From Polytrichum commune (taxonomy: Eukaryota; Streptophyta; Polytrichopsida; Polytrichales; Polytrichaceae): DNA of 64,000 bases. A program made the translations under genes and the position numbers. The stretch's first letter is position 1; the number at the start of each line of letters is the position of its first letter. The notes beneath the pieces were generated by a model that was given only the letters and a program-made list of their open reading frames with translations, had not been told where the DNA came from and searched no databases. Positions 20,374-60,113 of the stretch are shown in pieces. The stretch is from assembly GCA_950295325.1 (NCBI GenBank), contig OX485804.1, positions 14,756,001 through 14,820,000 of the forward strand. The letters are read 5' to 3'.

Positions 20374-20424
20374 GAGGAAATTAAATCGAGTGAAAGACAA
20401 TTATGAATCATGAAGGGGATTTAC

Positions 20425-22530
20425 CAGTTCCATGAAACCACCCCATTGAAGGTAGCGGAAGTGCCAGAAAGCAAGCCATAGCTGGAGGTGCTTGAGACTG
20501 TCCTCACTTGTACAATTCGATGATGCCCACCAAGCCTTGATAGCTAGGTACCTAGTCTCCGCCTCTGCCATAGAGGACGCATTGCGATATTGAAGGCAAA
20601 GGTGTCTATGTTGGTCTTGTAACTCATGCTTTATGTAGGATTTCGTATGTTTCTCGAGCGACTGTTTCCAATGGAAAAAACAAGTGCGCTCACGGCCCTC
20701 CATAGGAACTTTGGGATCTCCTGAACCATACACAATGCGCACAACATTCCAATTGGTTTGCGCACTGTCCGCCATGAAGCCAATAAAGTTAGGATGCGGG
20801 ATACCGTGGCGGGCCATGACATGGTTGAGGTTCTGCCAGAAGAGCACTTGGGCATCCTTATCCTCCGATTGGAAATCACAACATGAAATGGTCATGACCC
20901 GTTGATAAGTCCCATCGTAGACATGAGCGGCCATGGTGGTCCACCCTTTGACACGCTTGACGTGATCGGACATAATCCAGGCGTTCTCAAGGTCCCCACC
21001 CGGTTGCATCCGACGAACCAAATCCACCCCGCTTCCAGGACCAACCTCAGACATCTTGAAGACGAACACCTTGTCGGCATCGTCACCTTGTCCTGGGAAT
21101 TGGTTCCGTTGGACGTAGGCCCAATTGCTAACGCCTCGGAGCTTTGCGATGCCATCCATAACACCGAACCTCCGCAAAAATTTGAAAGAGGTAACCTTAG
21201 ATCGAAGGTTTGGGGAATTCAACCCTCTACAGCTCTCAAACACAGTGTCGAGCTCTGTTAAGGAGAGGAGACGGTGTTTCTCACTATTTTCAGAAAGGAG
21301 GAACTCACCAACAATGTCCTTGCTGGCTTCAAGGACGATCTTGTTGTACGTGGCCTGAGGCGTACGCTCAACGTGCTCCTCGATAAGAGCATTGATGCGC
21401 TTCCGACTGTCTCTGCAGTCCCCAACCTTCACTGGATGTTGATGGTTTCCGATATGAATGCAGGCTCTTTGGGAGAAATTCTTCCCATGGACGTAGAAAA
21501 TCTTCGCCTCGCAAAATGCAATGCATTTGGGAGGTTGTTTGCAGATCTTGCACACAAGAGTAGATCCGGATGGCACAATGCCAGAGAGAGGGAAAGGCTG
21601 AGTAGTGAAACCATCAAATTCCGTGTCGTTGACATGAGAGATACGATGGGCGCGTTGAAGGAAATCACAACAAGTGTTTTGGCATTGGAGATGGCCAACA
21701 CAGGTAGAGGAACGAAATAGAAGGCCAACGTCGTTTGTAATGTTGGTGGTCTGAGTCTTCGTCCAAACATGGCCATCATATTGCTTGTCCATGCCGTCCA
21801 TGGACCTGGCCCTGGAAAGAGATGAAGAGACTTCTGGTGCAGGGAGGACAAATAACTGGGTACCATCGAAACGAGGGGGGAGGTGATTAACCTCTTGGAT
21901 TTTGATCTTATCGTAATCTATTTTCTTGAGGACGCTTTTACTACCGGGTATAGAACCTAGACGACGAAGACATTGAACAATAGGTGGAGGAGGTTTGGAC
22001 GTAGACGGTACGGAAGGAGATAAAGGAACATAGCGAGAAGGTGAAGGTGTTACAAAGGAATCAGAGGGAAACAAAGGAGGGGAATCATGAACATCAGCCT
22101 TCCTCATAGATACATCTTCAATCGAAGAATCAGACAAGTCTACAACATTGTCTATGTCAGGCTCGGTCTTGACACTTACTACCGGAGGTGTGCTAAAGTC
22201 ACCAGTGGAAGATCGAAGAGGAGCATGGAGTTCTGTTGACACTCCCATCTAAGAAGCTGGCCAACCAATAACCCTATACTTTCCAGGGCCAAGCTCCCAC
22301 ACTACATTGCCATTGTCAGTTGCCTTGGAGGATTCATGGAAGGAATGAACGAGCAATCCAGTATCAGGATTGAAGATCTCACGATCTACCCATATTGTAT
22401 TAAGTTGAAGAGAGAACCTAATGCTAAGATGAAGCTCCGAGACAACAGCAATACCCTGTGCACCAATGGGGAAGAGAATAGGGACATCGTTGGCATTGGA
22501 ACGAAGTTCGGCCATTGAGCTGGAAGCCAT
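20425..22530 (-). pseudogene. MULE transposase, N-terminal part (exon 1)
   Basis: Start chosen at 22530 (MASSSMAELRSNANDVPILF). An in-frame TAG at 22249-22251 breaks an otherwise single open frame that continues to 20425, where CTG|GTAAAT is a good donor; the exon is 702 codons. The order is an N-terminal domain, an acidic/Pro-rich linker, a Cys/His cluster (CKICKQPPKCIAFCEAK then HIGNHQH) like WRKY-GCM1-type fingers, and the catalytic core: HVYDGTYQRVMTISCCDFQ with the first Asp, NFIGFMADSAQTNWNVVR with the second Asp, and ERTCFFHWKQSLEKH. The third acidic residue is in the second exon at 57445. Mutator-like transposases cut and paste DNA. The intron contains element R copy A. Confidence 0.75.
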
Positions 22531-22832
22531 GAAGGCAAAAAAACATAAACGTAAATGAACAAAGATGCAAAGATTTATAAGGAAGAAGAATGGTGAAGAC
22601 AAACGTTGTGATGTCACCATGTGCATCACCGAAGGAACAGATGTTGAGGAACTAATGTATATAAAAAAGGAGTAGGGGGAGGATGCCAAAAAAGGAAAAC
22701 AAGGGACGGCTGCCAAAAAGAGGGAAACCCTAACCCTGAAGCACTGGCAATATAAAGAACAATACAAGCAAAGGAACGAGTTATTATGTGAGTGCGATGC
22801 CCTAATAGAAGAGTATAGGAGAGAGACGATTA
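22531..22832. promoter_or_regulatory. Divergent intergenic region in the MULE
   Basis: These 302 bases separate the transposase start (22530, - strand) from the charged-protein start (22833, + strand). AT-rich with TATATAAAA-like sequence near 22656-22666. It probably holds both promoters; no factor sites can be named. Confidence 0.4.
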
Positions 22833-23400
22833 TTGGGACGCCGGGACGCACACATGAAGGAACCAGGAAATAGTCAAGTCTCCACAGCCGATCCTGGAAG
22901 GAAGAGGAAGAAAAGAAAGGGAGGGACGAGTTTTAGCAATTCAAAGCAGAGGCGACAGAGAGAACTTAGGAAGAAGGAGCAATCTTGTACACAGGGAAGT
23001 GAACCACCAACAAATTTGAGCAAGACGGGGGGAGAGGCAGAGACAGGGACGTCTAGCAGGAACGAGGAATTGGAACGGATAGAGGAAGAACGGGAGCAGA
23101 GTGGATCGCGCGAACCATCGATGGGAGAGAGCAAGCATCGAAGTGATTCGGATTCAAGCGAATCTGAGGAGGAGATAAAAGAGGACTCAATTGGCACAGT
23201 AAGTTTGGGTTTAGCGTATTACGCACTAGGCTCATATATACATTTAGGATATTTACAGGATGGAATTTGATATTGAGTTATCTAATGTGATTCTTAACGA
23301 CCAACATGTGAAATATTGGAAGTTCTTATTTTGTTTAAGTTGGTTAGAGGGGAATATAGAACCAAACCCTCTCGGAACCGAGAGGGTCAAATATTATGCA
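22833..23400 (+). CDS. MULE accessory gene: charged, disordered protein
   Basis: Exon 1 (22833-23198) encodes MGRRDAHMKEPGNSQV, then a basic block (GRKRKKRKGGTSFSNSKQRR) resembling a nuclear localisation signal and an acidic Ser/Glu tail (SDSDSSESEEEIKEDSIG). It ends at GTAAGT. A 49-base intron ending TTTAG at 23247 would join in frame to DIYRMEFDIELSNVILND and continue to the first palindrome near 23364; other acceptors give an early stop. The 3' limit is unclear and the gene may run into the satellite or splice further. It is transcribed divergently from the transposase. No domain is recognised. Confidence 0.45.
23364..23390. repeat. Isolated copy of the satellite palindrome
   Basis: CCCTCTCGGAACCGAGAGGG flanked by A/T, the perfect palindrome of the 139-bp array, here with GGAACC in place of GGTTCC at its centre. 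It lies 300 bases before the array, inside or just after the accessory gene. Confidence 0.75.
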
Positions 23401-23699
23401 CCACGAATAGGCTATAAGCTAAGCACGAAGTTGTGCGGGGCCGCCACCTCCCAAACATGGCACATAGGACATAGGCTTTCGGCCCATACCCTTTTGGGGT
23501 GAGGTACATAGGCCAAAGTATCCCGATTCCTCTAGCTCCTAGGAACCATCCACCACACCAAGGAACCCTTGAGTCTAACCTAGATTAGTCTTCGGAGGCG
23601 CCTCCACTATATGCCGGCCGAAGCAAGGAGGAGCGCATTCGTGAGAGGTTGGAAGTTCGGGATTCTCAGGTGGATGTCTACTTGTGATATTCTGAATGT
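23401..23699. other. Sequence between accessory gene and satellite
   Basis: Contains GGCCGCCACCTCC and CCCTTTTGGGG-like runs and no supported gene. It leads into the first degenerate unit near 23700. Confidence 0.35.
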
Positions 23700-26600
23700 T
23701 GATTTCTCAAGACAGGAATCTGAAATGTAGATATGGAGTCCATATAGGTAGTTTTGATTTTCAAAAGTTGATAATATGGTTAGGATAGTTAGACAGGGAC
23801 ACCCTCTCGGTTCCGAGAGGGTGGAGAAATGTGGAAATTTGAGGCTTATGACTAGAATCTGATTTGTAATTAATGGGACCATATAGGTAGTTTTGATTTT
23901 CAAGAGTTGAAAATATGGTTAGGATAGTTAGACTAGGACACCCTCTCGGTTCCGAGAGGGTGGAGAAATGTGGACTTTGGAGGCTCCTGACTAGAATCTG
24001 AAATGTGGATTAAGGGCCCATATAGGTAGTTTTGATTTTCAAAAGTTGAAAATATGGTTAGGATAGTTAGACTGGGACACCCTCTCGGTTCCGAGAGGGT
24101 GGAGAAATGTGGAAATCTGAGGCCCTTCACTAGAATCTGAAATGTGCATTAAGGGCCCATATAGGTAGTTTTGATTTTCATATGGTCAATATATGGTAAG
24201 CTTAGTTAGACTGGGACACCCTCTCGGTTCCGAGAGGGTGATGAAATGTGGAAATTTGAGGCTTATGACTAGAATCTGATTTGTGGATAATGGGACCATA
24301 TAGGTAGTTTTGATTTTCAAAAGTTGAAAATATGGTTAGGATAGTTAGACTGGGACACCCTCTCGGTTCCGAGAGGGTGGAGAAATGTGGAAATCTGAGG
24401 CCCTTCACTAGAATCTGAAATGTGGATTAAGGGCCCATATAGGTAGTTTTGATTTTCATATGGTCAATATATGGTAAGGTTAGTTAGACTGGGACACCCT
24501 CTCGGTTTCGAGAGGGTGATGAAATGTGGAATTTTTAGGCTCATGACTAGAATCTGATTTGTGGATATGTGGCCAATTTAGGATGTATTTATTTTCATAT
24601 GGTCAATATATGGTCATTATAGTAGGAAGGGGACACCCTCTCGGTTCCGAGAGGGTGGAGAAATGTGGACTTTTTAGGCTCATGACTAGAATCTGATTTG
24701 TGGATAATGTGACCATATAGGTAGTTTTGATTTTCAAAAGTTAAAAACATGGTTAAGATAGTTAGACTGGGACACCCTCTCGGTTCCGAGAGGGTGGAGA
24801 AATGTGGACATTTGAGGCTTATGACTAGAATCTGATTTGTGGATAATGGGACCATATAGGTAGTTTTGATTTTCAAAAGTTGAAAATATGGTTAGGATAG
24901 TAAGACTGGGACACCCTCTCGGTTCCGAGAGGGTGGAGAAATGTGGAAATTTGAGGCTTATGACTAGAATCTGATTTGTAATTAATGGGACCATATAGGT
25001 AGTTTTGATTTTCAAGAGTTGAAAATATGGTTAGGATAGTTAGACTAGGACACCCTCTCGGTTCCGAGAGGGTGGAGAAATGTGGACTTTGGAGGCTCCT
25101 GACTAGAATCTGAAATGTGGATTAAGGGCCCATATAGGTAGTTTTGATTTTGAAAAGTTGAAAATATGGTTAGGATAGTTAGACTGGGACACCCTCTCGG
25201 TTCCGAGAGGGTGGAGAAATGTGGAAATCTGAGGCCCTTCACTAGAATCTGAAATGTGGATTAAGGGCCCATATAGGTAGTTTTGATTTTCATATGGTCA
25301 ATATATGGTAAGCTTAGTTAGACTGGGACACCCTCTCGGTTCCGAGAGGGTGATGAAATGTGGAAATTTGAGGCTTATGACTAGAATCTGATTTGTGGAT
25401 AATGGGACCATATAGGTAGTTTTGATTTTCAAAAGTTGAAAATATGGTTAGGATAGTTAGACTGGGACACCCTCTCGGTTCCGAGAGGGTGGAGAAATGT
25501 GGAAATCTGAGGCCCTTCACTAGAATCTGAAATGTGGATTAAGGGCCCATATAGGTAGTTTTGATTTTCATATGGTCAATATATGGTAAGGTTAGTTAGA
25601 CTGGGACACCCTCTCGGTTCCGAGAGGGTGGAGAAATGTGGACATTTGAGGCTTATGACTAGAATCTGATTTGTGGATAATGGGACCATATAGGTAGTTT
25701 TGATTTTCAAAAGTTGAAAATATGGTTAGGATAGTAAGACTGGGACACCCTCTCGGTTCCGAGAGGGTGGAGAAATGTGGAAATTTGAGGCTTATGACTA
25801 GAATCTGATTTGTAATTAATGGGACCATATAGGTAGTTTTGATTTTCAAAAGTCGAAAATATGGTTAGGATAGTTAGACTAGGACACCCTCTCGGTTCCG
25901 AGAGGGTGGAGAAATGTGGACTTTGGAGGCTCATGACTAGAATCTGAAATGTGGATTAAGGGCCCATATATGTAGTTTTGATTTTCATAATGTCAAAATA
26001 TGGTCATTATAGTAGGACAGAGACACCCTCTCGGTTCCGAGAGGGTGGAGAAATGTGGAAATTTGAGGCCCTTCACTAGAATCTGATTTGTGGATAATGG
26101 TCCCATATAGGTAGTTTTGATTTTCAAAAGTTGAAAATATGGTTAGGATAGTTAGAGTGGGACACCCTCTCGGTTCCGAGAGGGTGGAGAAATGTGGACA
26201 TTTGAGGCTTATGACTAGAATCTGATTTGTAATTAATGGGACCATATAGGTAGTTTTGATTTTCAAAAGTTGAAAATATGGTTAGGATAGTTAGACTAGG
26301 ACACCCTCTCGGTTCCGAGAGGGTGTAGAAATGTTGAAATCTGAGGCCCTTCACTAGAATCTGATTTGTGGATAACGGGCCCATATAGGTAGTTTTGATT
26401 TTCATAATGTCAAAATATGGTCAGTATAGTAGGACAGAGGCACCCTCTCGGTTCCGAGAGGGTGGAGAAATGTGGAAATTTGAGGCCCTTCATTAGAATG
26501 TGATTTGTGGATAACGGGCCCATATAGGTAGTTTTGAATTTCATAATGTCAAAATATGGTCATTATAGTAGGGCAGGGACACCCTCTCGGTTCCGAGAGG

Positions 26601-27530
26601 GTGGAGAAATGTGGACTTTGGAGGCTCATGACTAGAATCTGAAATGTGGATTAAGGGCCCATATAGGTAGTTTTGATTTTCAAAAGTTGAAAATATGGTT
26701 AGGATAGTTAGACTGGGACACCCTCTCGGAACCGAGAGGGTGGAGAAATGTGGAAATCTGAGGCCCTTCACTAGAATCTGAAATGTGGATTAAGGGCCCA
26801 TATAGGTAGTTTTGATTTTCATATGGTCAATATATGGTAAGGTTAGTTAGACTGGGACACCCTCTCGGTTTCGAGAGGGTGATGAAATGTGGAATTTTTA
26901 GGCTCATGACTAGAATCTGATTTGTGGATATGTGGCCAATTTAGGATGTATTTATTTTCATATGGTCAATATATGGTCATTATAGTAGGAAGGGGACACC
27001 CTCTCGGTTCCGAGAGGGTGGAGAAATGTGGACTTTTTAGGCTCATGGCTAGAATGTGAAATGTGGATAATGCGCCAATATAGGTAGTTTTGATTTTCAT
27101 TAGTTCAGACTTTGGTCATTATAGTAGGACATGGTCACCCTCTCGGTTCCGAGAGGGTGTTGAAATGTGGAAATTTTAGGCTCATGACTAGAATCTGATT
27201 TGTGGATAATGGGCCCATATAGTTAGTTTTGAATTAGTTAGACTGCGTGTATGTCCTCTCGGTTCCTAGAGGGGGAGACATGTGGAAATTTGAGGCCGAA
27301 CACTAGAATCTTATATGTGGTTATATAGCCTTTAAAGGTATTTCTGATTTCTGAAAGTTGAAAATATGGTCTGGTTTGTTAGATTGGGTCACCCTCTCGG
27401 TTCCGAGAGGCTGGAGAATTGTGGATTTCTAGGCTCATCACAAGAATCATATATGTGGTTTAAGGTTACTTTAGTAGGACAGGACACCCTATCGGTTCCG
27501 AGATGGTGGAGAAATGGTGTTTATATGGGC
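23700..27530. repeat. 139-bp palindromic satellite array, block 1
   Basis: About 25 units of 139 bp plus several degenerate ones at the right edge. Palindromes begin at 23799, 23938, 24077, 24216 and so on. Each unit has the palindrome CACCCTCTCGGTTCCGAGAG plus GGTG, then GAGAAATGTGGA, CTAGAATCTGA, CCATATAGGTAGTTTTGATT and a GTTGAAAATATGG end. An 8-unit block (1112 bp) is duplicated: segments from about 23880 recur from 24992. Since 139 is not a multiple of 3, the repeated - strand frames are chance products. Confidence 0.9.
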
Positions 27531-27726
27531 TCTTCACTCTATTCTTATTTCAGATTTTCGGATTCAATAGGCTAGGTTTGAAGTGTATGGATTATTTGTA
27601 TGTGTATGGAGTGCGTTGTATAAGGTTAAAGGGTGCATTTCTAAAAGGACTGGGGCATCATCTCGATGTATTTTGTGCATACAGGCATCGCAGGCTTTGG
27701 CCCTTACTGTGGCGCGTGTCTAATAC

Positions 27727-30700
27727 ATGGCGGATGGGCATATTCTATTGTCGCCTCGTGAAGATTGCCATAGGGCACTGGATGACATCTCACAGGGAGA
27801 GGTGTTTGATTCGTTGAAATTCTGTTGTATTTTTGTTTGCCTCTGCTTCTTGTTTGTTTCGTCTTATAGTTTTTTTCTGATGTTTCCCTCCTCTTCTCTT
27901 GTAGATTGATGTTCCGCTTGTTTCCGACTGCATTCGACCTCTTGATGAGGAGAATCCAGATGAAGCCGAGCTCAAGGTTCGGAGATCGCAGAAGCAAGAC
28001 TCTAACACCGTGATTCAGCGGGTGCGATTCAAGCCTCTTGGGAAGTCTCATTTCTCTATTCCATTGTGTTGCTTGCGGAGTCTTCCTCTTGTTCGGCCAA
28101 TCAACAACGTTGATGTTTCTCGTTTGGAGAATGAGTTCGTCATGGGATACCGTGATGGTGACCGCGCTTTGTACGTCTCTCTAGGAAACAACCTCGATGA
28201 GGTCCTTCATGTCTCCGATGACGTCAAGTCCTCCTGGAGTCCATTATGGCAAGAGGCCAATGCAGAGTTTGATGCGATTCTCGAAAGAGACCCCGACCTT
28301 GCTAACTTTGTTGGCAAAATGTTCTACGTGTGGGAGGGGAACCATCGGTTGACAGCTTGGTGGAGGCACATCAACAAGCATCACCCTTTGGACAAAGATT
28401 GGCATATATGGGCTGATTGTATTTTGGTGGATCCAAGAAATTGCACCGCCCTCTTCCTTAATGCTATGAATGACATCAACTGGTGAGTTCAACATTTAAT
28501 GTTGCTGATATTCTCTTTTGTTTGTTCTCATTTTTCCCTCTAACATTTTGTTTGTTATAGGTCCACGGAGCATGACCATGTTAAGGATAACCTCCCCGCC
28601 AAGTTACTTCGCATTCGCACGTTTGGAAAGATGAGGCTAGAGGAGTTCAAAGACCTCCTTTCCGTTTCGGACTACAAGATGTGTGAGTCCAAGATGGAGA
28701 AGACTCCTACTTGGTATCCCCTGACATTAGATGTCTTTGTCAAATTCTTATACAAGGTAAAGTTTGTTTAAACTTTCCTTGACTTTCCTTCTCCCATGTT
28801 TATGTGGGTTCCTTATCCTTCTTTGTGTTTGTTTCAGAGAGAGATATCCAACGCGGCTGATACGGCTGCGAGGTTATACCGTGAGGCCACTCCCGAGGCT
28901 CTCCGATCTTCGACAGAAATTTGGGATATTATGTCAAAAGCCCAGGATAGGTTGATCAAAAGCATTCGTTCTCGGAACTTTGAGAAGTTCATTTCTGTTG
29001 CCCACAAGGACAACGGGGATGATTTCTTCAACGAGGTGTCTCTCTTATCCTTGTGTTTTCATTTATTCTTTCATTCTCATTTACATCATGTCGTGCTTGA
29101 TATCTCTTTCTTACTTATCTCTATTCTTACTTCATATCTATGTGGCAGATTGACCGTCATTTCTCCACCTTCCTCGTCCCTGATATGACAATCGAAAAAC
29201 TTCAAAAGGTGGCTACCGCACATGTGGATGCCCATTTCAAGGCCAAGTGGCTTCGTTGGTGGAACTCCCCTGCCGATGTCAAGGAAAAGAATAGATTTCC
29301 GTCGTCTCTCCCTCTTAGGGAGAAAGTCCTCGAAAACTGGCTCAACAAAGCTTCTTTCTGGGCGCAGGTGCAACTCTTGTTTTTTTCCTCTTTCTATTAT
29401 TTGAAATCTTCATACCAAGGACTAGGACACCCTCTCGGTTCCGAGAGGGTGGAGAAATGTGGATATCTTAGCCTCAAGACTATAATATGAAATGTGGATA
29501 TTGAGCCAATATAGGTACTTTAGATTTTCAAAAGTTGAAAACATGGTCATTGTAGAAGGACTAGGACACCCTCTCGGTTCCGAGAGGGTGGAGAAATGTG
29601 GAAATCTCAGGCTCAAGAATAGATTCTGACTTGTGGATAATGGGCCCCTATAGGTAGTTTTGATTTTCAAAAGTTCAAAATATGGTTAGGTTAGTTATTC
29701 TGGGACACCCTCTCGGAACCGAGAGGGTGGAGAAATATGGAAATATTAGGCTCATGTCTAGAATCTGATTTTTGGATAATGGGCCCATATAGGTAGTTCT
29801 GATTTTTACAAGTTCAAAATATGGTTAGGTTAGTTAGACTGGGACACCCTCTCGGAAATTAATGGCTCATGACTAAAATATGGTTTGTGCTTATTTAGCC
29901 AATATAGGTAATTCTGGTTTTTAAAAGATGAAAATATGGTGAAAATGGTAGGACAGGGACACCCTCTCGGTTCCGAGAGGGTGGACAAATGTGGAAATTT
30001 TAGGCTCATGACTAGAATTTGATTTGTGGATAATGGGACCATATAGGTAGTTTAGATTTTCAAAAGTTGAAAATATGGTTCGGATAGTTAGACTGGGACA
30101 CCCTCTCGTTTCCGAGAGGGTGGAGAAATGTGGAAATTTGAGGCCATTCACTAGAATCTGATTTGTGGATAATTGGCCCATATAGGTAGTTTTGATTTTT
30201 AAATGTTTAAAATATGGTCATTATAGTAGGACAGGGACACCCTCTCGGTTCCGAGAGGGTGGAGAAATGTGGAAATTTTGTGTTCATGACTAAAATCTGA
30301 TTTGTGGAAAATGGGCCCATATAGGTAGTTTTGGTTTTCCAAAGTTGAAATTGTGGTTAGGATAGTTAGACAGGGACACCCGAGAGGGTGTAGAGGTGTG
30401 GAAATTAATGGCTCATGACTAGAATCTGGTTGGTGATTATTTAGCCAATATATGTAATTCTGATTTTCAAAAGTTCAAAATATGGTGAAAATAGTAGGAC
30501 AGGGACACCCTCTCGGTTCCGAGAGGGTTGAGAAATGTGGAAATCTTAGGCTCGAGAGTAGAATCTGACTTGTGCATATTGAGCCAATATATGTAATTCT
30601 TATTTTCAGAACTCGAAAATATGGTCATTTTTTATTTTAGTGTTTTCCGAAATTTGGATTTGGGGTTCCCATGACTAGAATCTGATATGTGGTTATGAAG

Positions 30701-33700
30701 CCAATATCGGTATTTTTGGTTTTCAAAACTTTAAAATATGGTCAGTCTAGTAGGACGGGACACCCTCTCGGTTCCGACCGGGTGGATAAATGTATATATT
30801 TGAGGCTCAATACTAGAATCTGATTTGTGCTTCTTGAGCCAATAAGGGAATTTCAAGTTTTGATACTAAGGTTATTTTGGTATTAGTGGGTGCCTAGATG
30901 TGGAATTTGGGTTCTCAAGACTAGAATCTGTTATGTGGATATTGAGTTCATATAGGTAATTCTGATTTTCAAAAGTTATGGTCATATAGATAATGGGCCC
31001 ATTTAGGTAGTGTTCATTTTGAAAAGTTCAAAATATGGTTAGGTAGTTAGACTGGGACACCCTCTTGGTTCCGAGAGGGTGGAGAGATGTGGAAATTAAT
31101 GGCTCATGACTACAATCTGTTTTTGCTTATTTAGCCCATATAGGTAATTCTGATTTTCAAAATTTGAGAAAATGGTCATTATAGTAGGACCGGGACACCC
31201 TCTCGGTTCCGAGAGGGTGGAGAAATGTATGTTTTGAGGCTCAAGACTAGAATCTGATTTGTGCTTATTTAGCTAATAAGGGAATTTCAGATTTTGAGAA
31301 TATGTCACTGTGGTCATTTTGGGTGAGAACTTGAAAATATGGTCTGATTTCCCGGTCCAGTTTTCTAATGTGCATAAGTGATGCTAATATGTGGTGCTCA
31401 TATGTGGATTTATTTGGCTCGTCACTAGAATCTGATATCAGGTTATTCAGCTAATATGTTTATTTCTTGTTTGGAAATATAGAATGTTTGACTGGGACAC
31501 CCTCTCGGTATGAGTGGGACACCCTCTCGGTCTTTTTGTCATGTCTAAGGTTTTTTTTATGTGTCTAGAGTCTAAGTTCATGTTTGTAGGTTATTGAGTT
31601 GTTCTTTTCTTACTATTTTCCTTTTCTGTCATAGTTGGAGAAGGGGGTTGAGGCTGAGATTGCTTCATTTGAGAATGTTTGTTCCGTTGAAATCGATTGG
31701 AGTTCCACGGAAGATATTTTTCAACCGGGAGATTATGTTGAGCATTGGAGGCTGATTCTTTGGGACAAGGCATTTTTGGTTTATTTTGACGATAAGGGAG
31801 ATCTAAAATTTGTCAAAGGCCTTGATCTCATGGATTTTAGGGACGGCCCCATATCAATCAAACGCGTCGCTTACCGGTAATATTCTGAGTTTTCTTTGAG
31901 TACATGTTGTTTTTGTTTCATTTCCTTTTCCCCACCGTCTTTGTTTCTCATGTTTTTCATTTTTCAGGTTCATTCACCGTGAGCTCGTTGTGAAGAATGC
32001 ATTGCCTTTTTCGTGCTTGCCAACTTTTCTTTTACATTGGGTCGATGTCAACTCCGATCTTTGTGTTTTTACGCCCAATCAAGTTGCCAAGTTTCCGCAG
32101 TCTCATTTGTAAGCTGGGGGATGGTACTTGGATTGTTCTGGAGGATTTGTGCATGCGGAAGAAAAGCCTCTTCTTACTAGCCTTGTGCGTAGTGCTCCCG
32201 AGGTGAACATTGTCCCGGATGAGGAGCTCGACATCGTTGAGCTTCCTCCTCCACCGCCCAAGGCACCCAAGGCAAAGGGCAGAGGTAAGAATACCGGCAC
32301 TCAATTAACTCGGTCCGCCTCAAAGACCCCCGTTCAGCCACCCACCTTACTACAGAGTCCACCTAGCACTCCCTCCGTTGCTCCATCAGCTGCCCCCTCT
32401 ATCACTCCCTCCGCATGTCGGCCACCAACTGTTGCTACTCCTTATCACAGTGGCACTTCTCTTCTCTCCTTGCCTCGCAAGAGGAAGGCCGCCCTCTTGG
32501 ATACGAGTGCCACCTCTTCGGATTCACCTACCACGCTTTCCCTCATCGAAAATGTGGACATGGTACAATTCATGCTCGATTGCGACCTTGCAGGAGGTCC
32601 CCTCCCGGCATATACGCGCATCCAAAAATTCATTGCCAAGGTTTGTATGTTTTTTATTGGCATTCATCAAACTCCTTTCCATTTGGTTTGCGTTTTTTTT
32701 TCCTTCTTCATTTTTTCTCATGGATTTTTCATTGCAGGCCGGGGAAGGTCGTTCCCATGTGAACACCTCCTCTACACATCACAAGGGACTGGATTTACTC
32801 TTCGCGGACATTCCCGAAAATTTGCCGGTGCCCAACATCTCCACGGATGTTCCTGATTGGAACAAGCTCTATGACTCTTACTATGACTGTCTTTTTGCTT
32901 TTGCAAAATCTAACCTCTATGATCATGGCATCCTTGTTATTTTCCATTGTGCGAGTGCAAGTGTTTCTAGGCTTATTTTCGATTGGGCTCACACTTACGA
33001 CTTCTACATCGCCGAAGATTGGTTCGGTATGGCTGATTTGGACCTCCAATCTCCGATGGACCCCTCTGGAGTGGTAAGCAACTATCCCTCTCCTAGTCCA
33101 TTTTTTTTTTTTTTTTTTCATTTCACTTCTTCCGATTCTTATGGAATCGTTTTCATTTTTTCAGACTCGTAAATTCAGTATCAAGGTTCTTGTTTGTGTT
33201 AACTTCGTTCTGAAAGTGCGACCGGAGGCCGCCAAGGAGTATGGTTACTACCTCCAGCGAGATGGATGGTTGAATGCTGTCACTGATGAGAAGAGCCAGA
33301 CGATGCGCAGTGATGGGATACCCTGGAGAGGTGCTCGCGAGAAGCATCAAGTTTTCTTCTCTATCCTTTTTGCTACTCTCACAGATAAGAATGATGTTAT
33401 TATAGACTGGCATTGTGGTGTAGGTGGTTCAATTACAGCGTGTCGCTCCATTGAGCGGCATATTGTGGCCCTTGAGAGTGACCCAGTGATTTTCAATGCG
33501 ATCCTACTCCCCATGCGTGAAAACCAACCTTCGCAACCCTCCCGCTCAAATGCCCCACCGTCCACCTCTATGTTTGATCCGCCTAAGAAGATGACCAAAC
33601 GAGCATTCGGTTTTCTTTGTGCGTAAGTTTTCTTTCTATGTTTTGTCATGTTTGCCTTCTAGTGATTTTCTCATCTTCGTGTGTCATCTTGTTTCTAATC

Positions 33701-33930
33701 TTATTGTTTTTTGGTTCAGAGTGCCAAGGGAGAACGCATGTATGAGTTCGAGTCCTTCCAAGACATTTGAGCTCCCTTGCTATGCGGCTGGGCTTCCCAA
33801 TCTTTTGGCGGAAGCTCCGTCTCCACCTCCCAGTCGCATCCGACCTTTCAACAAACTAGTAGAGGAGTATTTAGACGTAGAGGTGGAGGAGGGCGAGGAT
33901 AGTGATAGACATGGTAGTCCTAGTTCTTGA
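27727..33930 (+). CDS. ParB-like / beta-class adenine-methyltransferase-like fusion protein
   Basis: Ten exons: 27727-27801, 27905-28482, 28561-28756, 28838-29035, 29149-29367, 31635-31876, 31968-32640, 32738-33073, 33165-33622 and 33720-33930. Phases agree and give about 1061 residues. Exon 2 has a ParB/sulfiredoxin-like fold signature ending FYVWEGNHRLTAWW (GNHR box, 28337-28348). A long helical middle and a Pro/Ser linker follow. Exon 8 has GLDLLFADIPENLPVPN at the place of the DPPY motif (DIPE, 32807-32818), then HGILVIFHCASASVS. Exon 9 has REKHQVFFSILFATLTDKND followed by VIIDWHCGVGGS, an AdoMet motif I (33405-33431). Motif order IV then I is that of beta-class N6A/N4C DNA methyltransferases. 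The DPPY motif is altered, so activity is doubtful. An in-frame TAA at 32110 is avoided if 32109-32180 is a 72-base intron (GTAAGC...CTAG). The exon 1 donor is weak. Confidence 0.65.
29420..31530. repeat. 139-bp palindromic satellite, block 2 (within intron 5)
   Basis: About 12-14 units of the block 1 family, more diverged, fill the 2267-base intron between exons 29149-29367 and 31635-31876. Some units keep only half of the palindrome (near 29846 and 30375) and spacing becomes irregular after 30500. Confidence 0.85.
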
Positions 33931-34489
33931 CTACGCCTCGGACCTCCATTTTGTTTATATTGATTTTACTTTATAAGTTTATTTCTTGAATTTTTATGTG
34001 GCTTTTGCAAACCTTATTCAATCCCTCATTGAAGTTCGTTAGTGTTTGATTTCAATTCTTTAGATAGGTTCGGGTGGACAGGTTGAGTATACTTTGAAGG
34101 TTGTCTTCTTTAGTTGTACTTGAGAGATGGTAAGGTTGTGAGTGACTTTGAATGGTTTGAATGTTTGTGTTCAACTTTAACTCTTGGCCACATTCCATAC
34201 CGCTTTAATGTTTGTGTTAAGCTTCAATTGATGACGTAAGCCCTAATTTAATATAAACGTATTCGAAACCTATACTATAAGATGTTTGATAACAAACACT
34301 ATCTTCCACGCCTATAGGTTCGGTTCTTATTTACACGGGAATGGGGTGCCTTTCCGACAAATTGAAGACAAACTATCACTAAAATCCACGGAAATAGGCA
34401 CGACTTCTCCTATAATTACCCAACAAATTTGAAAATCTCCGCTCTCCGCTCTCCGCTCTCTGAGCTATGCTCGCATACTTCAGTTTCCC
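33931..34489. other. 3' flank of the methyltransferase-like gene and MULE terminus
   Basis: No gene. Near 34385 lies CCACGGAAATAGG, also present inverted in position at 59920. 34438-34461 holds tandem CCGCTCT/CTCCGCTCT repeats that recur near 60040-60090. The MULE ends at 34489. Confidence 0.6.
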
Positions 34490-34492
34490 TCC

Positions 34493-36288
34493 TCGGGGGA
34501 TTACAGAAGGATGGGCCGGCCGCCGCGAGGGCTTGTTCGCCGGAAAATTTAGAAGAGACGCGGATCCGAAGGACAGCTTCCACCCCGGGAACTGCCGGAA
34601 CCTAAGAGAGAGGAGGGTATTGGAATTCCTCCTGCCTATCCTTAACCCGGACAAGCCGAAGCGGATTAGCCTTACCATGGCTAACACGCTGTTTGGTGCA
34701 ATGTCCGGAGTCCGGCCGGTAAATTGGGGCCTGATCATCCAGGAGATAGTCGGACGGGCCCTCCCCCACATCGGCCGGAAACCCTCCTTCCTCTCCCCCT
34801 TCATTCTACACCTTTACCAGCACTTTGACTGCATCCTGGCGGAGGAGGAGGACCTGCTAACGATAGCGACGGACGAGGTCACCTACAAGCTTCTTCCGGA
34901 AGCCGGAGACATCGAGACGGAAACATCCAGCGACCCCATTCTTCCGGAAGCACCTCCCTCGTCGCCCGGAAGCCCGCCGCCGACTGTCTCGAGGCCACTC
35001 TCTCCTCCTCCCTCGCACCATCATCCGGAAGCCGGACCCAGCCGGGAGACCCCATGGCGGAATGTGGACCTATCCGCTTGGGACTTTCCGGAGAATCCGT
35101 TCAAACGGTTCCAGGAGGGCATGGAGGACCTCAAGACCCAATATTACCGACTGGAGCACATCGTCAAGGGGGCGAACCATGCTCTGGACGACTGCGGACC
35201 CGGAAACATTCTCCGGGAATTGGCAAAGAGGGCGGACCGGAAGGAGCTGGAGCAAGCCAAGACGGAGAACGCCCACCTCACCGCACAGGTAGCGGCCATG
35301 ACTCAGGAGCTGAGTCAGAAGAGCGAGGAGATCCGGAAGTACCATGCGGAGCAGGCAGTGCTCTTCAGCCGGATCCGGGAGCTGGTGGGTCATCCGGCGG
35401 AGATCGTTAACAAGGCACATCTCTACGACCGGATGATGGAGTCCGGAGATCCCGTTTCCGCCAGGCAGACCCTCCCCATCCTCGTGAAATATTCACGAAC
35501 GATGAAGGATCTCCTGGCGGAAATCCAGAGAGTGGTCCCGCCAAGCAGAACACCGCGGAGGGTGCTCTATCCGGGTCCGTCAGGGTCACCAACCGGAACC
35601 CTCTACGAGGTGGTTGGTGAAGTAGCCCTGGTTCAGAATCCGCCGTCCTCTGCAGGACCTAGCCAGCAAGGAGGCGGCTCTCGGCCTGGTAGTTCCGGAG
35701 GGGCTCCGGAAAGGGTCCGTTCTCCTCAGGTGAGGCGGAAAAGCACCGGGTCGGTCCGATCCGGAAGGGGCCAGTCCCCTGTTCCGCGGAACTCGGATAG
35801 GTCCCGGACTCCGGATAGGGCTAGGACGCCGATCCGGCACCAAACTTCCGATCGGGAGGCAACTCCGAGTAGGGGCAAGGCCCCTATGACCCACGCCTCG
35901 CCATCGTCTCCACGGGACTACCAAATGGTGAGTCCCTTTCCTCCGCCACCCTCAAGGGCGGCCTCCAACAGGGATCCGCGGACGGCTTCGATCTCGGGCG
36001 GGCGGAATCCGGAGCAGGGCACCGGAAGCGATCCTTCTCCAGTCCGAAGCATCCGGATGGGGACAAGCTTCCGGAACCCCAGGGACAATCTCCGGAACAC
36101 CAGGGACCGCTACCCCACGGACCGAGAGGGCAGCGGATTCGGAGGACGAGGTTGCTCCGTCTCCGAACATGAGGAGGATGCTCACGCGGCTGCAGAAGGC
36201 ATCGCCGGCAGGGGGCTCATCCGCCGTCAGCGGGTTAGGGAGTCACTCAAAGGAGGGATCGGCTCCGAAGAAGCACCGGTCTTCTTAG
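34493..36288 (+). pseudogene. Element R protein, copy B, C-terminal part
   Basis: Continues from the MULE junction in frame as RGITEGWAGRREGLFAGKFR, through RRVLEFLLPILNPDKPKRIS and the conserved MANTLFGAMSGVRPVNWG block, the coiled coil and the Arg/Ser/Pro tail. It is the uninterrupted version of the region that LTR insertion splits in copy A. A one-base insertion near 36063 (GGACAAGC against GAACAGC) shifts the last 75 codons; the ancestral stop corresponds to TAG at 36286-36288. It retains KDLLAE, absent in copy A. Confidence 0.6.
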
Positions 36289-37075
36289 TTAGGAGAGTAG
36301 CTAGATTAGTTAGGCAGAATAGAGGTAGGCAGGTAGGACTTAGGAGTTTTTGAAGACGATTAATAAAATTTTCCCTTGGTAGTGTCAGCGGAAAACCCGG
36401 ATCTGGATCTGGGAAATCCGGGAGACTGGGTGTAGTTAGGGTTTTCTTAAGCGGCGGCCGCTTGGGCCGCCGCCCTCAGTTTAGGGATTTTTGAGCCTCT
36501 ACTTAAGGCTGAATAAGGAGCTTAAGAAGGGTTCCTTCTCAATTGTTGTATTGCGATTACTCTTATTCTGAATAAATGTCTTTACCTCTCACTCCTTGAC
36601 TTCTCTTTATTGATGTTTGCGTGAATGATCCGGAGATTGCTAGTGGAAGAAAGAGAGAGAGCATGAGGGATAGGAGTTCCGGATAGGACATGAGAGAGGA
36701 GACCCGGATCAGATCCGGTTATCGCCTTGTAGATCCTCTCTGAGTGTAGTGGGAGGGAAACCTCACTAATCCGGTGGGTTGGGTAACGTCTAGGTGGGAT
36801 AGCCGCTGGGAAGATTGGGTGAGATCTGGAAGGGATCCGGATTTACGCCAATCTGATCTTCTGAAGAGGTCCCACCGTCCTTAGACGGACCTATCCGGAT
36901 TGGTGGTACGGATCGCCCAGTTAGCTCAGATTGAGTAGAATCCAAGGTAGAGGTAGCCGGACAGATCCGTCGGACGGAGAAGGAGAGGTCCGGATCAGTA
37001 AGGATTCCGGATTGGAGGCCACCTCCGGAGTGTAGTAGGAAGAGATCCTCATTGTTCCGGATGTCTAGGTAACGT
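36289..37075. repeat. TCCGGA-rich 3' region of R copy B
   Basis: Parallels 19001-19790 of copy A, with the same CCGGA-rich motifs and only small differences. No gene. Confidence 0.6.
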
Positions 37076-37542
37076 TGTCGTGATGTAAATACGTACACTA
37101 TATAGATGTGTACGTATTTAATATTGCATTGTGATTCTTGGTCTTGGAGAAAAATAATAAAGAATAGAAGTAGATTACTTTTTTTATTTACTCATAGTTT
37201 ATTTTAGCTATCATTACCTAAGGATAGAAGTGGATAGAAGTTGCTTACCTTTATGTGTACTCATAGTTACTCTTAGTTACCTTTACCAAATGATAGAAAT
37301 AGATTACCTTTTTATTTACTCATAGTTTATTTTTGTCTTTTAGTTATCTTGAAATGGGTTACCGACTAAGGGGTGAGTCCCGAAAGCAAAGTAGGAGGGT
37401 TGGTTCCCTCCTATGAACTATTGGTCCGGGGTAAGAGGAGCTATCCATTAGCATGGCGGAATGCGAAGGGTTAGCGACTCGTAACCTTTGCTAGAATTGA
37501 AAATTGGCAAGATTATTAAGGGACCTAGCAAGGGTTGCGACA
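37076..37542 (+). mobile_element. Family Z LTR-like fragment joined to X
   Basis: The first 276 bases match 9812-10091 (TTGTCGTGATGTAAAT start to TTATCTTGA). The remaining 190 bases are unlike 10092 onward and end GTTGCGACA directly before CTGGTGCGTCTGC, which looks like a primer-binding site. It may be a 5' LTR of a family Z element from which the X 5' LTR has become chimeric. Confidence 0.4.
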
Positions 37543-37818: not shown

Positions 37819-37822
37819 TAAT

Positions 37823-39643: not shown

Positions 39644-39655
39644 TATGTCCCTCAG

Positions 39656-53365: not shown

Positions 53366-53377
53366 TGTGGGAACACG
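53366..53377 (-). mobile_element. Last 12 bases of element R copy B
   Basis: TGTGGGAACACG is the inverse of the CGTGTTCCCACA that ends R copy A at 20373. On its outer side is GCATT, repeated at 61064-61068 next to the 5' end of R copy B. On its inner side LTR3 starts at once. Confidence 0.75.
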
Positions 53378-56247: not shown

Positions 56248-56689
56248 GCTTGTCCGGATTGAGAATGGGCAGGAGAAACTCTAGCACTCTCCGCTCCCGA
56301 ATATTCCGGCAGTTCCCTGGGTGGAATCCGTCCTTTGGATCCGCGTCCCCTCTGAACTTCCCGGCGAACAGGCCGCCGCGGCGGCCGGCCCACCCCTCCG
56401 TGATTCCCCTGGGAAACCCGTAGACCCTGTTCCACGTATCCGGAGTCCAATGTTCCGGATCCCTCCTCTTTGTGCCTAGCCACTGATTTCCTTTCTCGAA
56501 TTTAAACTCGCGGAGGGTATCTTCCGCTCTGAGATTCCAGGGCTTAGAGAGCAATCCCGCACAACCCATGACCCTGAGATCCTCCGCAAGCTCCTGCAGC
56601 TCTCTATCCTCCCTCGGAATTGCAGGGGTGAGGGCTTTCAGCGGAATCGGGATGGGTTCCCGCTGATCCTCTTCCCGTGCTTCCGGCAT
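56248..56689 (-). pseudogene. Element R protein, copy A, N-terminal part
   Basis: 147 codons from MPEAREEDQREPIPIPLKAL through RELQELAEDLRVMGCAGLLS, a WLGTKRRDPEHWTPDTWNRV segment and GFPRGITEGWAGRRGG to FLLPILNPDK, where LTR3 begins. Continues in frame at 17375 (PKRISLT). The same start occurs in copy B at 60397. No known enzymatic motif. The start is chosen because it is shared by both copies. Confidence 0.65.
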
Positions 56690-57342
56690 TTTCCTCTCCT
56701 CTCACCCTTTCCGGCTTGCAATCTCTCTCTCTCTTCCGTCTAATTGCCACAAAGTCCCGGCAAGCCCACTGCCGGTGACTGAAAAGTGCAGAGTCCCAAC
56801 AATCCAACTGCTGGCGGCTCGAAAGAAGGAACACCTCACCACTCGTTCTCTCAACAAGTTGCCCTTTTTTTTCCAGAAAAGAGTGGGAGGGAGAAGGAAG
56901 GGACCCTTAAATATCCTTCCTCCCTCTTCCTTCCCCTGTTACCGTTTGGTTTAACGGAAAACGGTTACCAACCGTTTTCCGGCGGTTCTCACCAACGGTT
57001 TTACTTACATTTTTACCAACGGCTTTCTTTTCCCCCAACCGTCATAAGGCCTGTTATAACCGCCACTTCTGGGCCGTTGGGTAATCTTGGCGCGTCCGTT
57101 ACTTGGTCCGGACCAATGGTTTGGACCATGATTACAGGGTCCGCCCATCCTATTTGACGGACCGGTCATAGTACTTATTTAGAGTCGTTTTTCCGCACAA
57201 GGCGGGGTTAGAATACTCTATTTCCTAGTACAATTAATTTTGTCCTAATAGACCCTATTACCTTCAGATAAGCAAGGAAAAATATGGAAATGGAATCCGT
57301 ATTTCCGTATTTCCGTCTTTCCGTCGAATTTGGACTCCCACA
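56248..57342 (-). mobile_element. Element R copy A, 5' part
   Basis: Starts TGTGGGAGTCCAAATTCG at 57342, preceded by GAGGA on the - strand (57347-57343), and runs to GGACAAGC at LTR3. About 650 bases of leader precede the start codon at 56689. The leader contains CGGAAATACGG repeats and several AACGGTT motifs. Confidence 0.75.
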
Positions 57343-57390
57343 TCCTCTCTATGTGCTCCCTCTAATACTCCCTCTGCACTCCCCAATCAG

Positions 57391-58848
57391 GAAAAGGTTC
57401 TGACTCAAGACCAGTTGGCCGAGATGCCGTCGTGCAATCTTGCGGAGTCCATCCACAACAAATGGCTTCAGGCCTCGGGCAACAAGGGTGGAGATTTATA
57501 CGTGGCTACGGTGGACGACTACATTCGCGCCTTCGTACAAGTTGTTGCATACTACACATTCCTTAAAGGTGGAGTTGGCGGAGATGGTCCAAGCAAAGAG
57601 GAACTCAAGCTCAGGGGTGTTCAACGTCGAGCTCAGCGTACTGGCGACCCCACAGTGTTGCAGAAGGTCTTGCTCGATATGCCCGGTGGGGAAGAGTTTT
57701 GCACTCGCGATCCACACCTTGAGGGCGCCGAGGTGTTTGGATCGCAGAAACGAAGACCTGACACTCCAATTGGTGATGATGGCGAGACCCACCACCCCGA
57801 TACCGTGAACTTCTCACGCCCTCGTCCCGGTAAGCGAGTCACTCGATCTTAGCCAGAAACCCTACCTACTATCATTGAGGAGTGTTCCCCGTCTGTTCAA
57901 GAGGTTCAAGTGCCTTCACCTGCAGGACTTGGTTTCCATCGTGTCACCGCAGTGCAAGAAACCAAAGTAGATGTCTCTCTTTGGCATATTGCCCGCATAC
58001 CCTATACATCAAGGAAGTCTTGTTGGGCTAATCATGCGGGCACGAAGAAGAAGTGCTCTGCAAGAATCGTCACCAATAATAAGAGCGTCCCTGCGCCTAC
58101 CTACACCGATATGTGGCATCATTACAAACTCCAATCGATGAAGCGCACGGACTTCGTCTTCTGCCCCAACGACATAGAGTGTTGTGTAAAGGGCCCTCGT
58201 CGGAAATGGGTCATGCCGTTCTCTGATGGTAAAGAGAAACCTCCCATTCCCCCAATCTGGCCTGTCAAGATTGGTACCAACCTCACCCGCTCGGAGATCT
58301 TCGCACTTGAGAACGCAAGTTTTCAACTCCCACCAAAGGAGCGCATCACACCGACTCGGCTCTTCACCAACTCTGCTCCCCCGCTGGATATGTCTCGAAT
58401 CCTTATTCCTGAACACCCCGACTTCATCCCTCCCACAAGATTGTCCAAGCTTGTTCGGCGATCCAGCAACGCACCTTCGGCAAAGCAGAGGCAGATGGTT
58501 GCCTCTGCTGAAGCTATGCATGGTATCGTTCTGAAGTTAACTATGATCCCTCAACCGGGATTTGGTTGCATTATCACACTGCAGTCCAAGTCAGAACCGC
58601 AACCACCCATCTACCAAGTGACAATAAGTTCTATTCCAGAGTGCAATTGCGCGAACTTTGTGGATATGATTTCCAAGTTCGGCCGCAAACGCAATCCTTA
58701 TCAAAATTGTAAGCATTTGTATTACATCTTCATCAAGGTTTCCAATTTGGATCCGGAAGTGAATTTGTTCATTCACGCCCCGACATTTAGCTTCAACGAA
58801 GTCAAACTTATCCTCGAAGGGGGTCTTTTGACACAACCTACTTCCTAG
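57391..58848 (+). pseudogene. MULE transposase, C-terminal part (exon 2)
   Basis: Follows a clear acceptor (CCCAATCAG) and is in phase with the donor at 20425. It starts EKVLTQDQLAEMPSCNLAES, where the Glu at 57445 in LAESIHNKWLQ is the expected third catalytic residue of Mutator-like enzymes. TAG at 57850-57852 interrupts the frame, then PETLPTIIEECSP continues to 58848. A SWIM zinc finger (CNC...CKH, about 58641-58722) lies near the C-terminus, as in many plant MULE transposases. 486 codons. Together with exon 1 the protein is about 1187 residues. Confidence 0.75.
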
Positions 58849-59009
58849 AATTCCGCTCAGCCTAGCACTACATTAGGCTATGATATATGTGTCCATTTAT
58901 GGACCAACCCTAAACCAATAATTGATTGATATAATAAAGGTATAATCTCAATGATTATTTTTATTTGCTTCAAAAATTTGTATCACAATGCTTCCTATGT
59001 CTATCAATT

Positions 59010-59477
59010 CTATTTCCGATTTGCATACTTCTTGGATAATTCCGATGGAGGTGGACCCGGTCGAAGCAAATCCCTATAAGATATTGTTTTGTCTCTAATT
59101 CGATCCTTCAGCGGAAGATGATGCGGAGGCAAGGCTCTCATTCTTTGGCGTAATGAAAGAGACTTCGAAGATTCACCTTCCACATTCACCTCTTGGTCCA
59201 TTTCCTTCGAATTGTCTTCATCCAAATCAGAGTCCTTCTCCGGCACATCTTCCTGCCTTTGTTCTTTTTTCTCATATTGTTTCTGCTCCTCCTGCACCCT
59301 CCACCTCCATGCTTGTGTAGACTGCGAAAATGGAGTCAGGTCGTAGTCATCACTAGCTCGATTTACAGGCCTAAATTCAAATTCCGGCGATGAATTAACG
59401 GGAATATGGGGATCTCCTAGACTTCTAATTTCCATCTCCCACCCTAATCCAGCAAACATGTCTCTCTTTTCTCCCAT
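59010..59477 (-). CDS. MULE accessory gene, unknown protein (~155 aa)
   Basis: Start chosen at 59477 (MGEKRDMFAGLGWEMEIRSL); an upstream Met at 59498 is possible. The N-terminal 50 residues look ordered (ASDDYDLTPFSQSTQAWRWR), followed by a charged coiled region (EKKEQRQEDVPEKDSDLDED) and a basic C-terminus (SYRDLLRPGPPPSELSKKYA). It is convergent with the transposase. No family recognised. Confidence 0.45.
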   Translation of the reverse strand: MGEKRDMFAGLGWEMEIRSLGDPHIPVNSSPEFEFRPVNRASDDYDLTPFSQSTQAWRWRVQEEQKQYEKKEQRQEDVPEKDSDLDEDNSKEMDQEVNVEGESSKSLSLRQRMRALPPHHLPLKDRIRDKTISYRDLLRPGPPPSELSKKYANRK

Positions 59478-59499
59478 TGTGTGCAAGTGTATACACAAT

Positions 59500-60113
59500 C
59501 ATGGTGGATATGAGTCCAATTTATAGTCTATTCGGCCACAAACGATAATTGCTAAAGTCCAACTTATAGAGTAGACTCACATATAAGACAAAGAGAAAAG
59601 TGATGAATAACAACGAAGGAAGTTTATTATTTTGATTCCTTTGTATTTTGATTGACCCATTCTTCATTTATACCAATCTTAGAAAATCCAATTTCATTGA
59701 TTATTCCTTGTAATCATCCTTGGTTTTAATAATTCTTCAATTATACCAACTTCGATATACTTATTTTGTTTGTTCTTTCTTGGGATCACCATTGATGTTT
59801 ATCATATACTTATACGTTTTATTTTGATGCTATTTCATTGTAGCACTTCTCGGGTCCGAAATGTAGTGAGACATTTTCAAATATAGGGCCTTTTGAGTTA
59901 GATGTGGACCTGTACATTCCACGGAAATAGGTCCTTTTTTTGCTATTTTTAGTAGATTCTAGCATATTTGAAGCATATTCTAGACTATTTTTTTAAAATC
60001 TAAATTTGGTCTCAGAAGTTTGCTAAATTTAATCACTCAATGCTCTCCGCTCTCCACATCACCGCTCTAAGCTCTTCGCTCCCCGCTCTACGCACACGTA
60101 CAAGTGTCGTCCC
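59500..60113. other. MULE terminal region
   Basis: AT-rich, no gene. Shares CCACGGAAATAGG (near 59919) and CTCCGCTCT repeats (60042-60090) with the opposite terminus. The last 25 bases are an imperfect inverted copy of the end at 34489. Confidence 0.6.

What the first reader, a model, noticed from the sequence alone, without database searches (positions are those of the whole stretch)
20374..60113. A Mutator-like transposon appears to carry a ParB-like/DNA-methyltransferase-like fusion gene
Seen: a 9-bp duplication (TCCTCGGGG at 34490; inverse at 60114) with GGGA termini bounds two segments that together hold a MULE transposase and, 5 kb away, a ten-exon gene at 27727-33930. That gene shows a GNHR ParB-like box, a DIPE motif where DPPY is expected, and an AdoMet motif I, in beta-class order. 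Known: ParB-like plus N6A/N4C methyltransferase fusions occur in phages and bacteria, and MULEs often carry extra genes. Inference: the fusion is MULE cargo that may mark or protect the element's DNA. I do not know of a description of this combination.
Basis: partly seen in the sequence, partly recalled or inferred. Interest (0 to 1): 0.92.

Follow-up and report, generated by a model that had tools for sequence, protein, structure and literature searches.

The report
Jumping gene with ParB–methyltransferase-like partner
A large, recently active family of jumping DNA carries, besides its transposase, a gene joining a bacterial-style DNA-clamp domain to a methyltransferase that has probably lost its activity, together with arrays of palindromes that may be that protein's landing sites; if so, it is an independent analogue of a rare way for transposons to escape silencing.

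Summary
The gene (27727-33930) lies in one element with GGGA termini and a 9-bp duplication (34490; inverted at 60114), split by nested insertions and an inversion. Elsewhere, 5 of 5 copies with both ends read (16.2-19.4 kb, about 99% identical outside arrays) have 9-bp duplications, the same gene and an open 1193-aa transposase. At least 78 loci hold gene parts; 24 of 37 exact left ends have one within 35 kb (0.1 expected). It is a standing second gene, not one-off cargo. Predicted structure gives a ParB/sulfiredoxin fold; profiles give a beta-class N6-adenine methyltransferase whose DPPY is DIPE, with no aromatic in 17 readable loci: probably inactive. dN/dS is 0.16-0.29. New: non-coding arrays between the genes and in a big intron carry 24-26-bp palindromes (23-45 per complete copy, 34 in the window arm); outer arms differ between two lineages while symmetry and CTCGGNNCCGAG persist. 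Layout, diverged second protein and conserved transposase match VANDAL/VANC anti-silencing, with unrelated proteins. Best reading: a self-recognition and anti-silencing factor. Binding and demethylation are untested; MULE membership by transposase sequence is not established.

The parts
34490..34498 (+). 9-bp target-site duplication, right copy (TCCTCGGGG)
60114..60122 (-). 9-bp target-site duplication, left copy, inverted (CCCCGAGGA)
20373..34489 (+). right arm of the element (transposase N-terminal exon on -, palindrome arrays, ParB/MTase-like gene on +, right terminus)
   Evidence: aligns to an intact copy from element position 2643 to 19322 of 19379 in pieces of 65-89%, the repeat arrays unaligned; right terminus as in other copies
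57380..60113 (-). left arm of the element, inverted in the window (transposase C-terminal exon, left terminus)
   Evidence: aligns to element 1-2614 at 72-91%
20425..22521 (-). transposase exon 1 (residues 11-708 of the intact protein); carries an in-frame stop in this copy
   Evidence: tblastn 87%; stop seen; open in 5 of 5 other copies translated
57391..58848 (+). transposase exon 2 (residues 709 to the end), with C-x-C...C-x-H (SWIM-like, by eye) at the C-terminus in intact copies
   Evidence: tblastn 91%; translation of intact copies
27727..33930 (+). ParB-like/MTase-like gene: exons 27727-27801, 27905-28482, 28561-28756, 28838-29035, 29149-29367, 31635-31876, 31968-32640 (in-frame stop inside), 32738-33073, 33165-33622, 33720-33930; exon 1 is the least certain
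   Evidence: GT/AG boundaries, exon structure kept in other copies
27905..28482 (+). exon encoding the ParB/sulfiredoxin-fold domain with GNHR
   Evidence: AlphaFold2 pLDDT 84.2, PDB matches, 423 proteins at E <= 1
32738..33622 (+). exons encoding the methyltransferase-like domain: DIPE at motif IV, then motifs X, I (CGVGG) and II
   Evidence: hhalign 94.7% with five phage methylases
23366..27430 (.). main palindrome array between the two divergent genes; 139-bp units (TRF 23740-27232), most with CACCCTCTCGGTTCCGAGAGGGTG or a close variant
29420..31318 (.). second palindrome array inside the intron 29368-31634 of the gene; 7 dyads with 10 or 11 of 11 symmetric positions

Best explanation
The feature is a 16-19 kb autonomous, Mutator-like DNA transposon family with two divergent genes: a transposase and a second protein made of a ParB/sulfiredoxin-fold domain and a degenerate beta-class N6-adenine methyltransferase. 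Shown by computation: the element, its copies, its two-gene content in the copies examined, the predicted ParB fold, the methyltransferase homology with loss of the catalytic aromatic, low dN/dS, and lineage-specific palindrome arrays. Inferred: the second protein, probably as a dimer, recognises the element's own palindromes, loads there much as ParB loads at parS, and keeps the element's chromatin open or counters host silencing, as VANC does for VANDAL elements. The presumably dead methyltransferase would serve as a DNA- or AdoMet-binding module rather than an enzyme. The transposase then acts on the terminal repeats.
For: Element and copies. ParB fold. Methyltransferase homology; no aromatic in 17 of 17 readable loci. 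Whole-gene dN/dS 0.16-0.29 in five pairs. Palindromes: 34 dyads in the window right arm (27 before exon 2, 7 in the intron, 0 in exons) against 0 in each of 20 Markov shuffles scored the same way; 34 palindromes with arms of 9 or more against 0 or 1 in each of the 20. The palindrome is the best conserved of 116 24-bp windows of the 139-bp unit, 99.3% against 89.6% for the rest. The other lineage has AAGAGGCCTCGGATCCGAGGCCTCTT or its core in different repeat units, 493 exact copies in the genome against 0 of the reversed pattern. Palindrome type agrees with the lineage of the 5' (ParB) half of the gene in 14 of 14 copies, window included (for L040 and L043 only one or two of the 5' exons could be compared). 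VANDAL parallel: motif arrays upstream of VANA and in introns of VANB and VANC, conserved transposase, diverged VANC (PMC5735166, sections read); here the transposase core is 92% identical between lineages, the ParB exon 64%.
Against: No binding, expression or methylation data. The arrays sit beside and inside the 5' half of the gene, so physical linkage alone could explain why palindrome type follows that half. There are only two lineages, so covariation has one independent contrast. No helix-turn-helix was identified. The C-terminal half was not folded. L038 and L042 keep few well-formed palindromes in the fetched 7 kb, although L038 has an open frame over nine exons. Of the first 50 listed sites of the second palindrome, 9 lie more than 26 kb from any listed copy and 13 more than 20 kb. 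dN/dS could not be estimated for the ParB exon between lineages because dS is saturated.
Confidence: 0.5

Rival explanations
1. The fusion is an active N6-adenine (or N4-cytosine) methyltransferase that marks the element's own DNA, the ParB part giving specificity.
For: Beta-class motif order and a glycine-rich motif I; dN/dS of the methyltransferase part is 0.17-0.33.
Against: Motif IV is DIPE, DIPK, DISE or YIPE in 17 readable loci, never ending in Y, F or W. A phage relative annotated as an adenine methyltransferase reads DIPY (JL22), so the P-to-I change alone need not matter, the loss of the aromatic does; that the motif needs an aromatic is recalled knowledge of the family, not tested here.
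Confidence: 0.1
2. The second protein is a transposition accessory factor (like MURB or a target/integration factor) and the palindromes serve transposition or replication of the element.
For: Second genes that assist transposition are known in Mutator elements (recalled); both genes are open in 3 of the 5 copies where both were translated.
Against: The palindromes are not in the terminal repeats but in the middle of the element.
Confidence: 0.2
3. The palindrome arrays are neutral minisatellites or hairpin-prone repeats spread by unequal crossing-over; the second protein has an unrelated role, for example a ParB-like scaffold or an RNA-level function.
For: Tandem arrays expand by slippage anyway; the number of palindromes varies between copies.
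Against: Different repeat units in the two lineages each carry a palindrome with the same central CTCGG..CCGAG, and in the window array the palindrome is the most conserved part of the unit.
Confidence: 0.2

Closest known systems
VANDAL elements with VANC anti-silencing proteins (Arabidopsis; PMC5735166, abstract and two results sections read; PMC10398659, abstract and outline seen)
   Same: Mutator-type element with 9-bp duplications (table passage of PMC6446971); transposase plus a second, faster-evolving protein; target motifs in tandem arrays upstream of the transposase gene and in introns; motif type differs between related subfamilies
   Different: VANC proteins carry DUF1985/DUF287, here ParB/sulfiredoxin and methyltransferase-like domains; the VANC21 motif is a 9-mer arrayed in one orientation, here 24-26-bp palindromes; anti-silencing is shown for VANC, only inferred here
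ParB/Noc/KorB DNA clamps and sulfiredoxin-fold domains
   Same: Predicted fold of exon 2; palindromic candidate sites
   Different: GNHR instead of the ParB GERR box (recalled); no helix-turn-helix identified; eukaryotic transposon; nucleotide binding unknown
Beta-class N6-adenine DNA methyltransferases (CcrM, DpnA, phage methylases; possibly ParB-methylase fusions such as the 392-aa methylase of Lactobacillus phage T280)
   Same: Motif order IV, X, I, II; ParB-then-methylase order if the T280 N-terminus is ParB-like (by eye only)
   Different: No catalytic aromatic in motif IV; ten exons; no match above Pfam's cut-off
Rehavkus and other minisatellite-bearing Mutator relatives (PMC6446971, abstract, one section and passages read)
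   Same: 9-bp duplication and internal minisatellite
   Different: Rehavkus has a PHD finger and is described from insects and annelids; second gene differs

Membership tests
Mutator-like elements (MULE superfamily) | 8-11 bp target-site duplication | tested here: met
   9 bp in the window copy and in 5 of 5 other copies with both ends read; range from PMC6446971 (passage)
Mutator-like elements (MULE superfamily) | terminal inverted repeats (present in most families) | tested here: met
   shared GTATGTGAGCGTAGAGCGGAGAG behind GG(G)A ends at both termini
Mutator-like elements (MULE superfamily) | transposase with MULE-type DDE domain | tested here: inconclusive
   No Pfam MULE match at E <= 10; 1 of 24 homologues hits PF00872 Transposase_mut at 0.034, below significance; hhalign against eight genomic MULE loci not significant. 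By eye: FMADSA, CFFHW (C2H), NLAESVHN and C-x-C...C-x-H
VANDAL/VANC | second protein with DUF1985/DUF287 | tested here: not met
   Pfam scan of both pieces of the window protein gave no such match at E <= 10
VANDAL/VANC | sequence-specific binding and loss of DNA methylation | not testable with these tools
   no binding or methylation data
ParB/sulfiredoxin-fold superfamily | ParB/Srx fold | tested here: met
ParB/sulfiredoxin-fold superfamily | sequence-profile match to ParB families | tested here: not met
   PF02195 is not among the 18 families matched by any of 96 members at E <= 1; no PDB sequence match at E <= 10
ParB CTPase clamp proper | CTP binding, helix-turn-helix, parS | not tested
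   GNHR in place of GERR (recalled box); no data
N6_N4 DNA methyltransferase, beta class | motif order and Rossmann-type motifs | tested here: met
   hhalign 94.7%, score 57.0 over 195 columns against 11.5-18.1 in 20 column-shuffled controls
N6_N4 DNA methyltransferase, beta class | Pfam cut-off for PF01555 (26.7 bits) | tested here: not met
   11.7 and 13.2 bits for the window protein, the only family listed but under the cut-off; 2 of 4 copies listed it
N6_N4 DNA methyltransferase, beta class | catalytic (D/N/S)PP(Y/F/W) | tested here: not met
   0 of 17 readable loci have an aromatic at position 4 (18 loci looked at, 1 unreadable)

The most novel reading that the evidence does not exclude
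A eukaryotic transposon family has turned a ParB-type domain fused to a dead DNA methyltransferase into a self-recognition system: the protein loads at dozens of parS-like palindromes in each element, spreads or clusters there, and shields the element from silencing; protein and palindrome diverge together between lineages. This would be a second, independent origin of sequence-specific anti-silencing by transposons, built from bacterial segregation parts.
Probability: 0.35. Interest if true: 0.93.

Novelty: new variant of a known kind. Interest (0 to 1): 0.82.

Why it matters
Sequence-specific anti-silencing by transposons is known to me only from VANC in Arabidopsis relatives. An unrelated protein with the same genetic layout would show that the strategy evolves repeatedly, would give a ParB-like system in a eukaryote with ready-made candidate sites, and could explain how 16-19 kb elements have spread recently. 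The palindromes make the idea directly testable in vitro.

Tried and rejected
Full-length search of the second protein in 5.8 billion proteins gave nothing at E <= 0.001, perhaps because gene callers split the exons and the length filter drops the pieces; a single-exon profile gave 423 matches at E <= 1. AlphaFold on one sequence failed (pLDDT 38.5); with 96 sequences it worked. Pfam, PHROGs, NCBIfam and PDB sequence searches of the ParB exon gave no credible match. hhalign of the transposase against eight local MULE loci was not significant. No relative of the ParB exon in viral contigs; one relative of the transposase in prokaryote genomes, a 4.1-kb contig of a cyanobacterial MAG, probably a contaminant. 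I first thought L039 a recombinant between lineages; exon identities do not support that. The 3' half of the gene differs far less between lineages than the 5' half (dS about 0.4 against saturated); old gene conversion is possible, not shown. Paper searches for a ParB/methyltransferase-bearing eukaryotic transposon showed none (listings only), in an open-access library.
Full report
What was checked. The window is G000:C2:14756001-14820000 of an unnamed 408-Mb genome in 64 contigs. The claimed 9-mer and its inverse each occur once, at 34490 and 60114. Immediately inside them lie the termini of one element: GGGACGACACTTGTACGTG... read inward from 60113 on the minus strand, and ...GCATACTTCAGTTTCCC ending at 34489.

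The element is real and repeated. A protein search with the C-terminal half of the gene gave 207 matches in the genome, 84 of 2674 candidates being scored; from the cut listing I took 78 loci, a lower bound, each holding part of the gene. Six further copies were fetched. They share an element at about 99% identity outside the arrays; five have both ends in the fetched stretch, 16.2-19.4 kb, and all five show 9-bp duplications. An exact search for the left terminus found 37 places, 0 for the reversed control; 24 of 37 have a same-strand copy of the gene 5-35 kb inward, against 0.1 expected for random positions. The other 13 may be truncated copies or may lie outside the cut listing.

How the window copy was broken. 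Aligned to an intact copy, the window arms cover element 1-2614 (60112 down to 57380) and 2643 to 19322 (20373 to 34460), apart from diverged arrays. The break lies in the transposase intron. Between the arms are a second copy of the host repeat (about 56248-57379 and 17376-20372, inner borders inferred) and LTR-retrotransposon material: LTRs at 14533-17375 and 44776-47618 are identical over 2843 bp, a third lies inverted at 53377-56247 (98.8%). Exchange between LTRs could explain the inversion; that is inference. The host-repeat copy without the element gives a related empty site.

The gene. Ten exons with GT/AG boundaries run from 27727 to 33930, with one in-frame stop in this copy. Of 140 exon cells (14 copies by 10 reference exons) 127 were located, most of them without any shift to reach AG and GT; 13 were not, from truncated stretches, damaged copies or a diverged last exon, and the last window exon was placed by hand. 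One lineage has an extra intron at motif I, the other a repeat-bearing intron of about 2 kb. Without the uncertain first exon, 4 of 6 copies of the second lineage are open to the end and 2 have one internal stop; L038, of the window lineage, is open over nine exons; L039 and L041 have stops, L037 and L042 lose frame, and L040 and L043 were too incomplete to translate. Whole-gene dN/dS over five pairs is 0.16-0.29: 0.16 for L038 against c4a, 0.29 for the window against L038, 0.19 for L041 against c4a.

The partner gene. On the other strand 5 of 5 copies translated encode an open 1193-aa protein in two exons (c3a not tried). It has 57 relatives at 35-95% identity in the protein collection, none with a precomputed Pfam domain. 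No Pfam MULE model matched, one of 24 relatives hit the bacterial Mutator family at E 0.034, and a thin profile comparison failed. Motifs read by eye fit a Mutator transposase. I call it Mutator-like, not a proven MULE.

The methyltransferase part. Weak but agreeing hits: PF01555 0.089, CcrM 0.0029, PHROG methyltransferase 0.0023, DpnA structure 0.053, phage CR8 methylase 1e-3 by tblastn. Profile alignment to five phage methylases reached 94.7% and score 57.0 over 195 columns, 20 shuffled controls 11.5-18.1, and laid DLLFADIPENL on DMVLCDPPYGT. Of 18 distinct loci, 14 read DIPE, one each DIPK, DISE and YIPE, one was unreadable. Loss of catalysis is therefore likely but not shown.

The palindromes. 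In the window right arm 34 dyads with 10 or 11 of 11 symmetric positions lie in non-coding DNA: 27 before exon 2 and 7 in the big intron. Twenty Markov shuffles gave 0 such dyads each, and 0 or 1 palindrome with arms of 9 or more against 34. In 25 aligned 139-bp units the palindrome is the most conserved 24-bp window of 116 (99.3%; rest 89.6%). The second lineage has different repeat units (307, 127 and 96 bp among others) and the palindrome AAGAGGCCTCGGATCCGAGGCCTCTT or its core, 23-45 dyads and 25-47 cores in each of the five complete copies. The genome holds 493 exact 26-mers, 0 reversed; of the first 50 listed, 37 lie within 20 kb and 41 within 26 kb of a listed copy. Outer arms changed on both sides; symmetry and CTCGG..CCGAG stayed. 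L041 has an imperfect form of the second type; L038 and L042 have few and weaker copies of the first.

Reading. Conserved transposase (92% in the core), diverged second protein (ParB exon 64%, middle 61%, methyltransferase part 84%), lineage-specific arrays upstream of the transposase gene and, in the window lineage, in an intron of the second gene: this is what was described for VANDAL and VANC (PMC5735166). The proteins share no Pfam family. I therefore propose a convergent self-recognition and anti-silencing system, with ParB-like loading at palindromes. Element, domains and arrays are shown by computation; binding, loading and anti-silencing are inferred. The rivals are an accessory transposition factor and neutral arrays, about equally likely, and less likely an active methylase.

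Noticed in passing
14533-17375, 44776-47618, 53377-56247: Three copies of a 2.84-kb LTR, two identical and one inverted at 98.8%, with flanks (CACTT, CAAGC) that suggest exchange between two insertions of one Ty3-type retrotransposon; gag and pol frames at 37927-44242.
   Followed up: partly
34499-37075 and 17376-19790: Host repeat with a 629-aa open frame without a Pfam match, present twice (96.5%); one copy received the element, the other sits inside it.
   Followed up: partly
37073-37352 and 9809-10088: A 280-bp stretch duplicated at 100% identity near a truncated LTR piece, perhaps patchwork repair or recent conversion.
   Followed up: no
element copies in L019-L036: A third palindrome, CCCACGGGTGAACACCCGTGGG or close variants, at least two copies seen in each fetched copy of the second lineage, near the main array.
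   Followed up: no
gene, 5' half against 3' half: Synonymous divergence between lineages is saturated in the 5' half but about 0.4 in the 3' half.
   Followed up: partly
L046:14-2122: A 43%-identical transposase relative on a 4.1-kb contig filed as a Synechococcales MAG, probably eukaryotic contamination.
   Followed up: no
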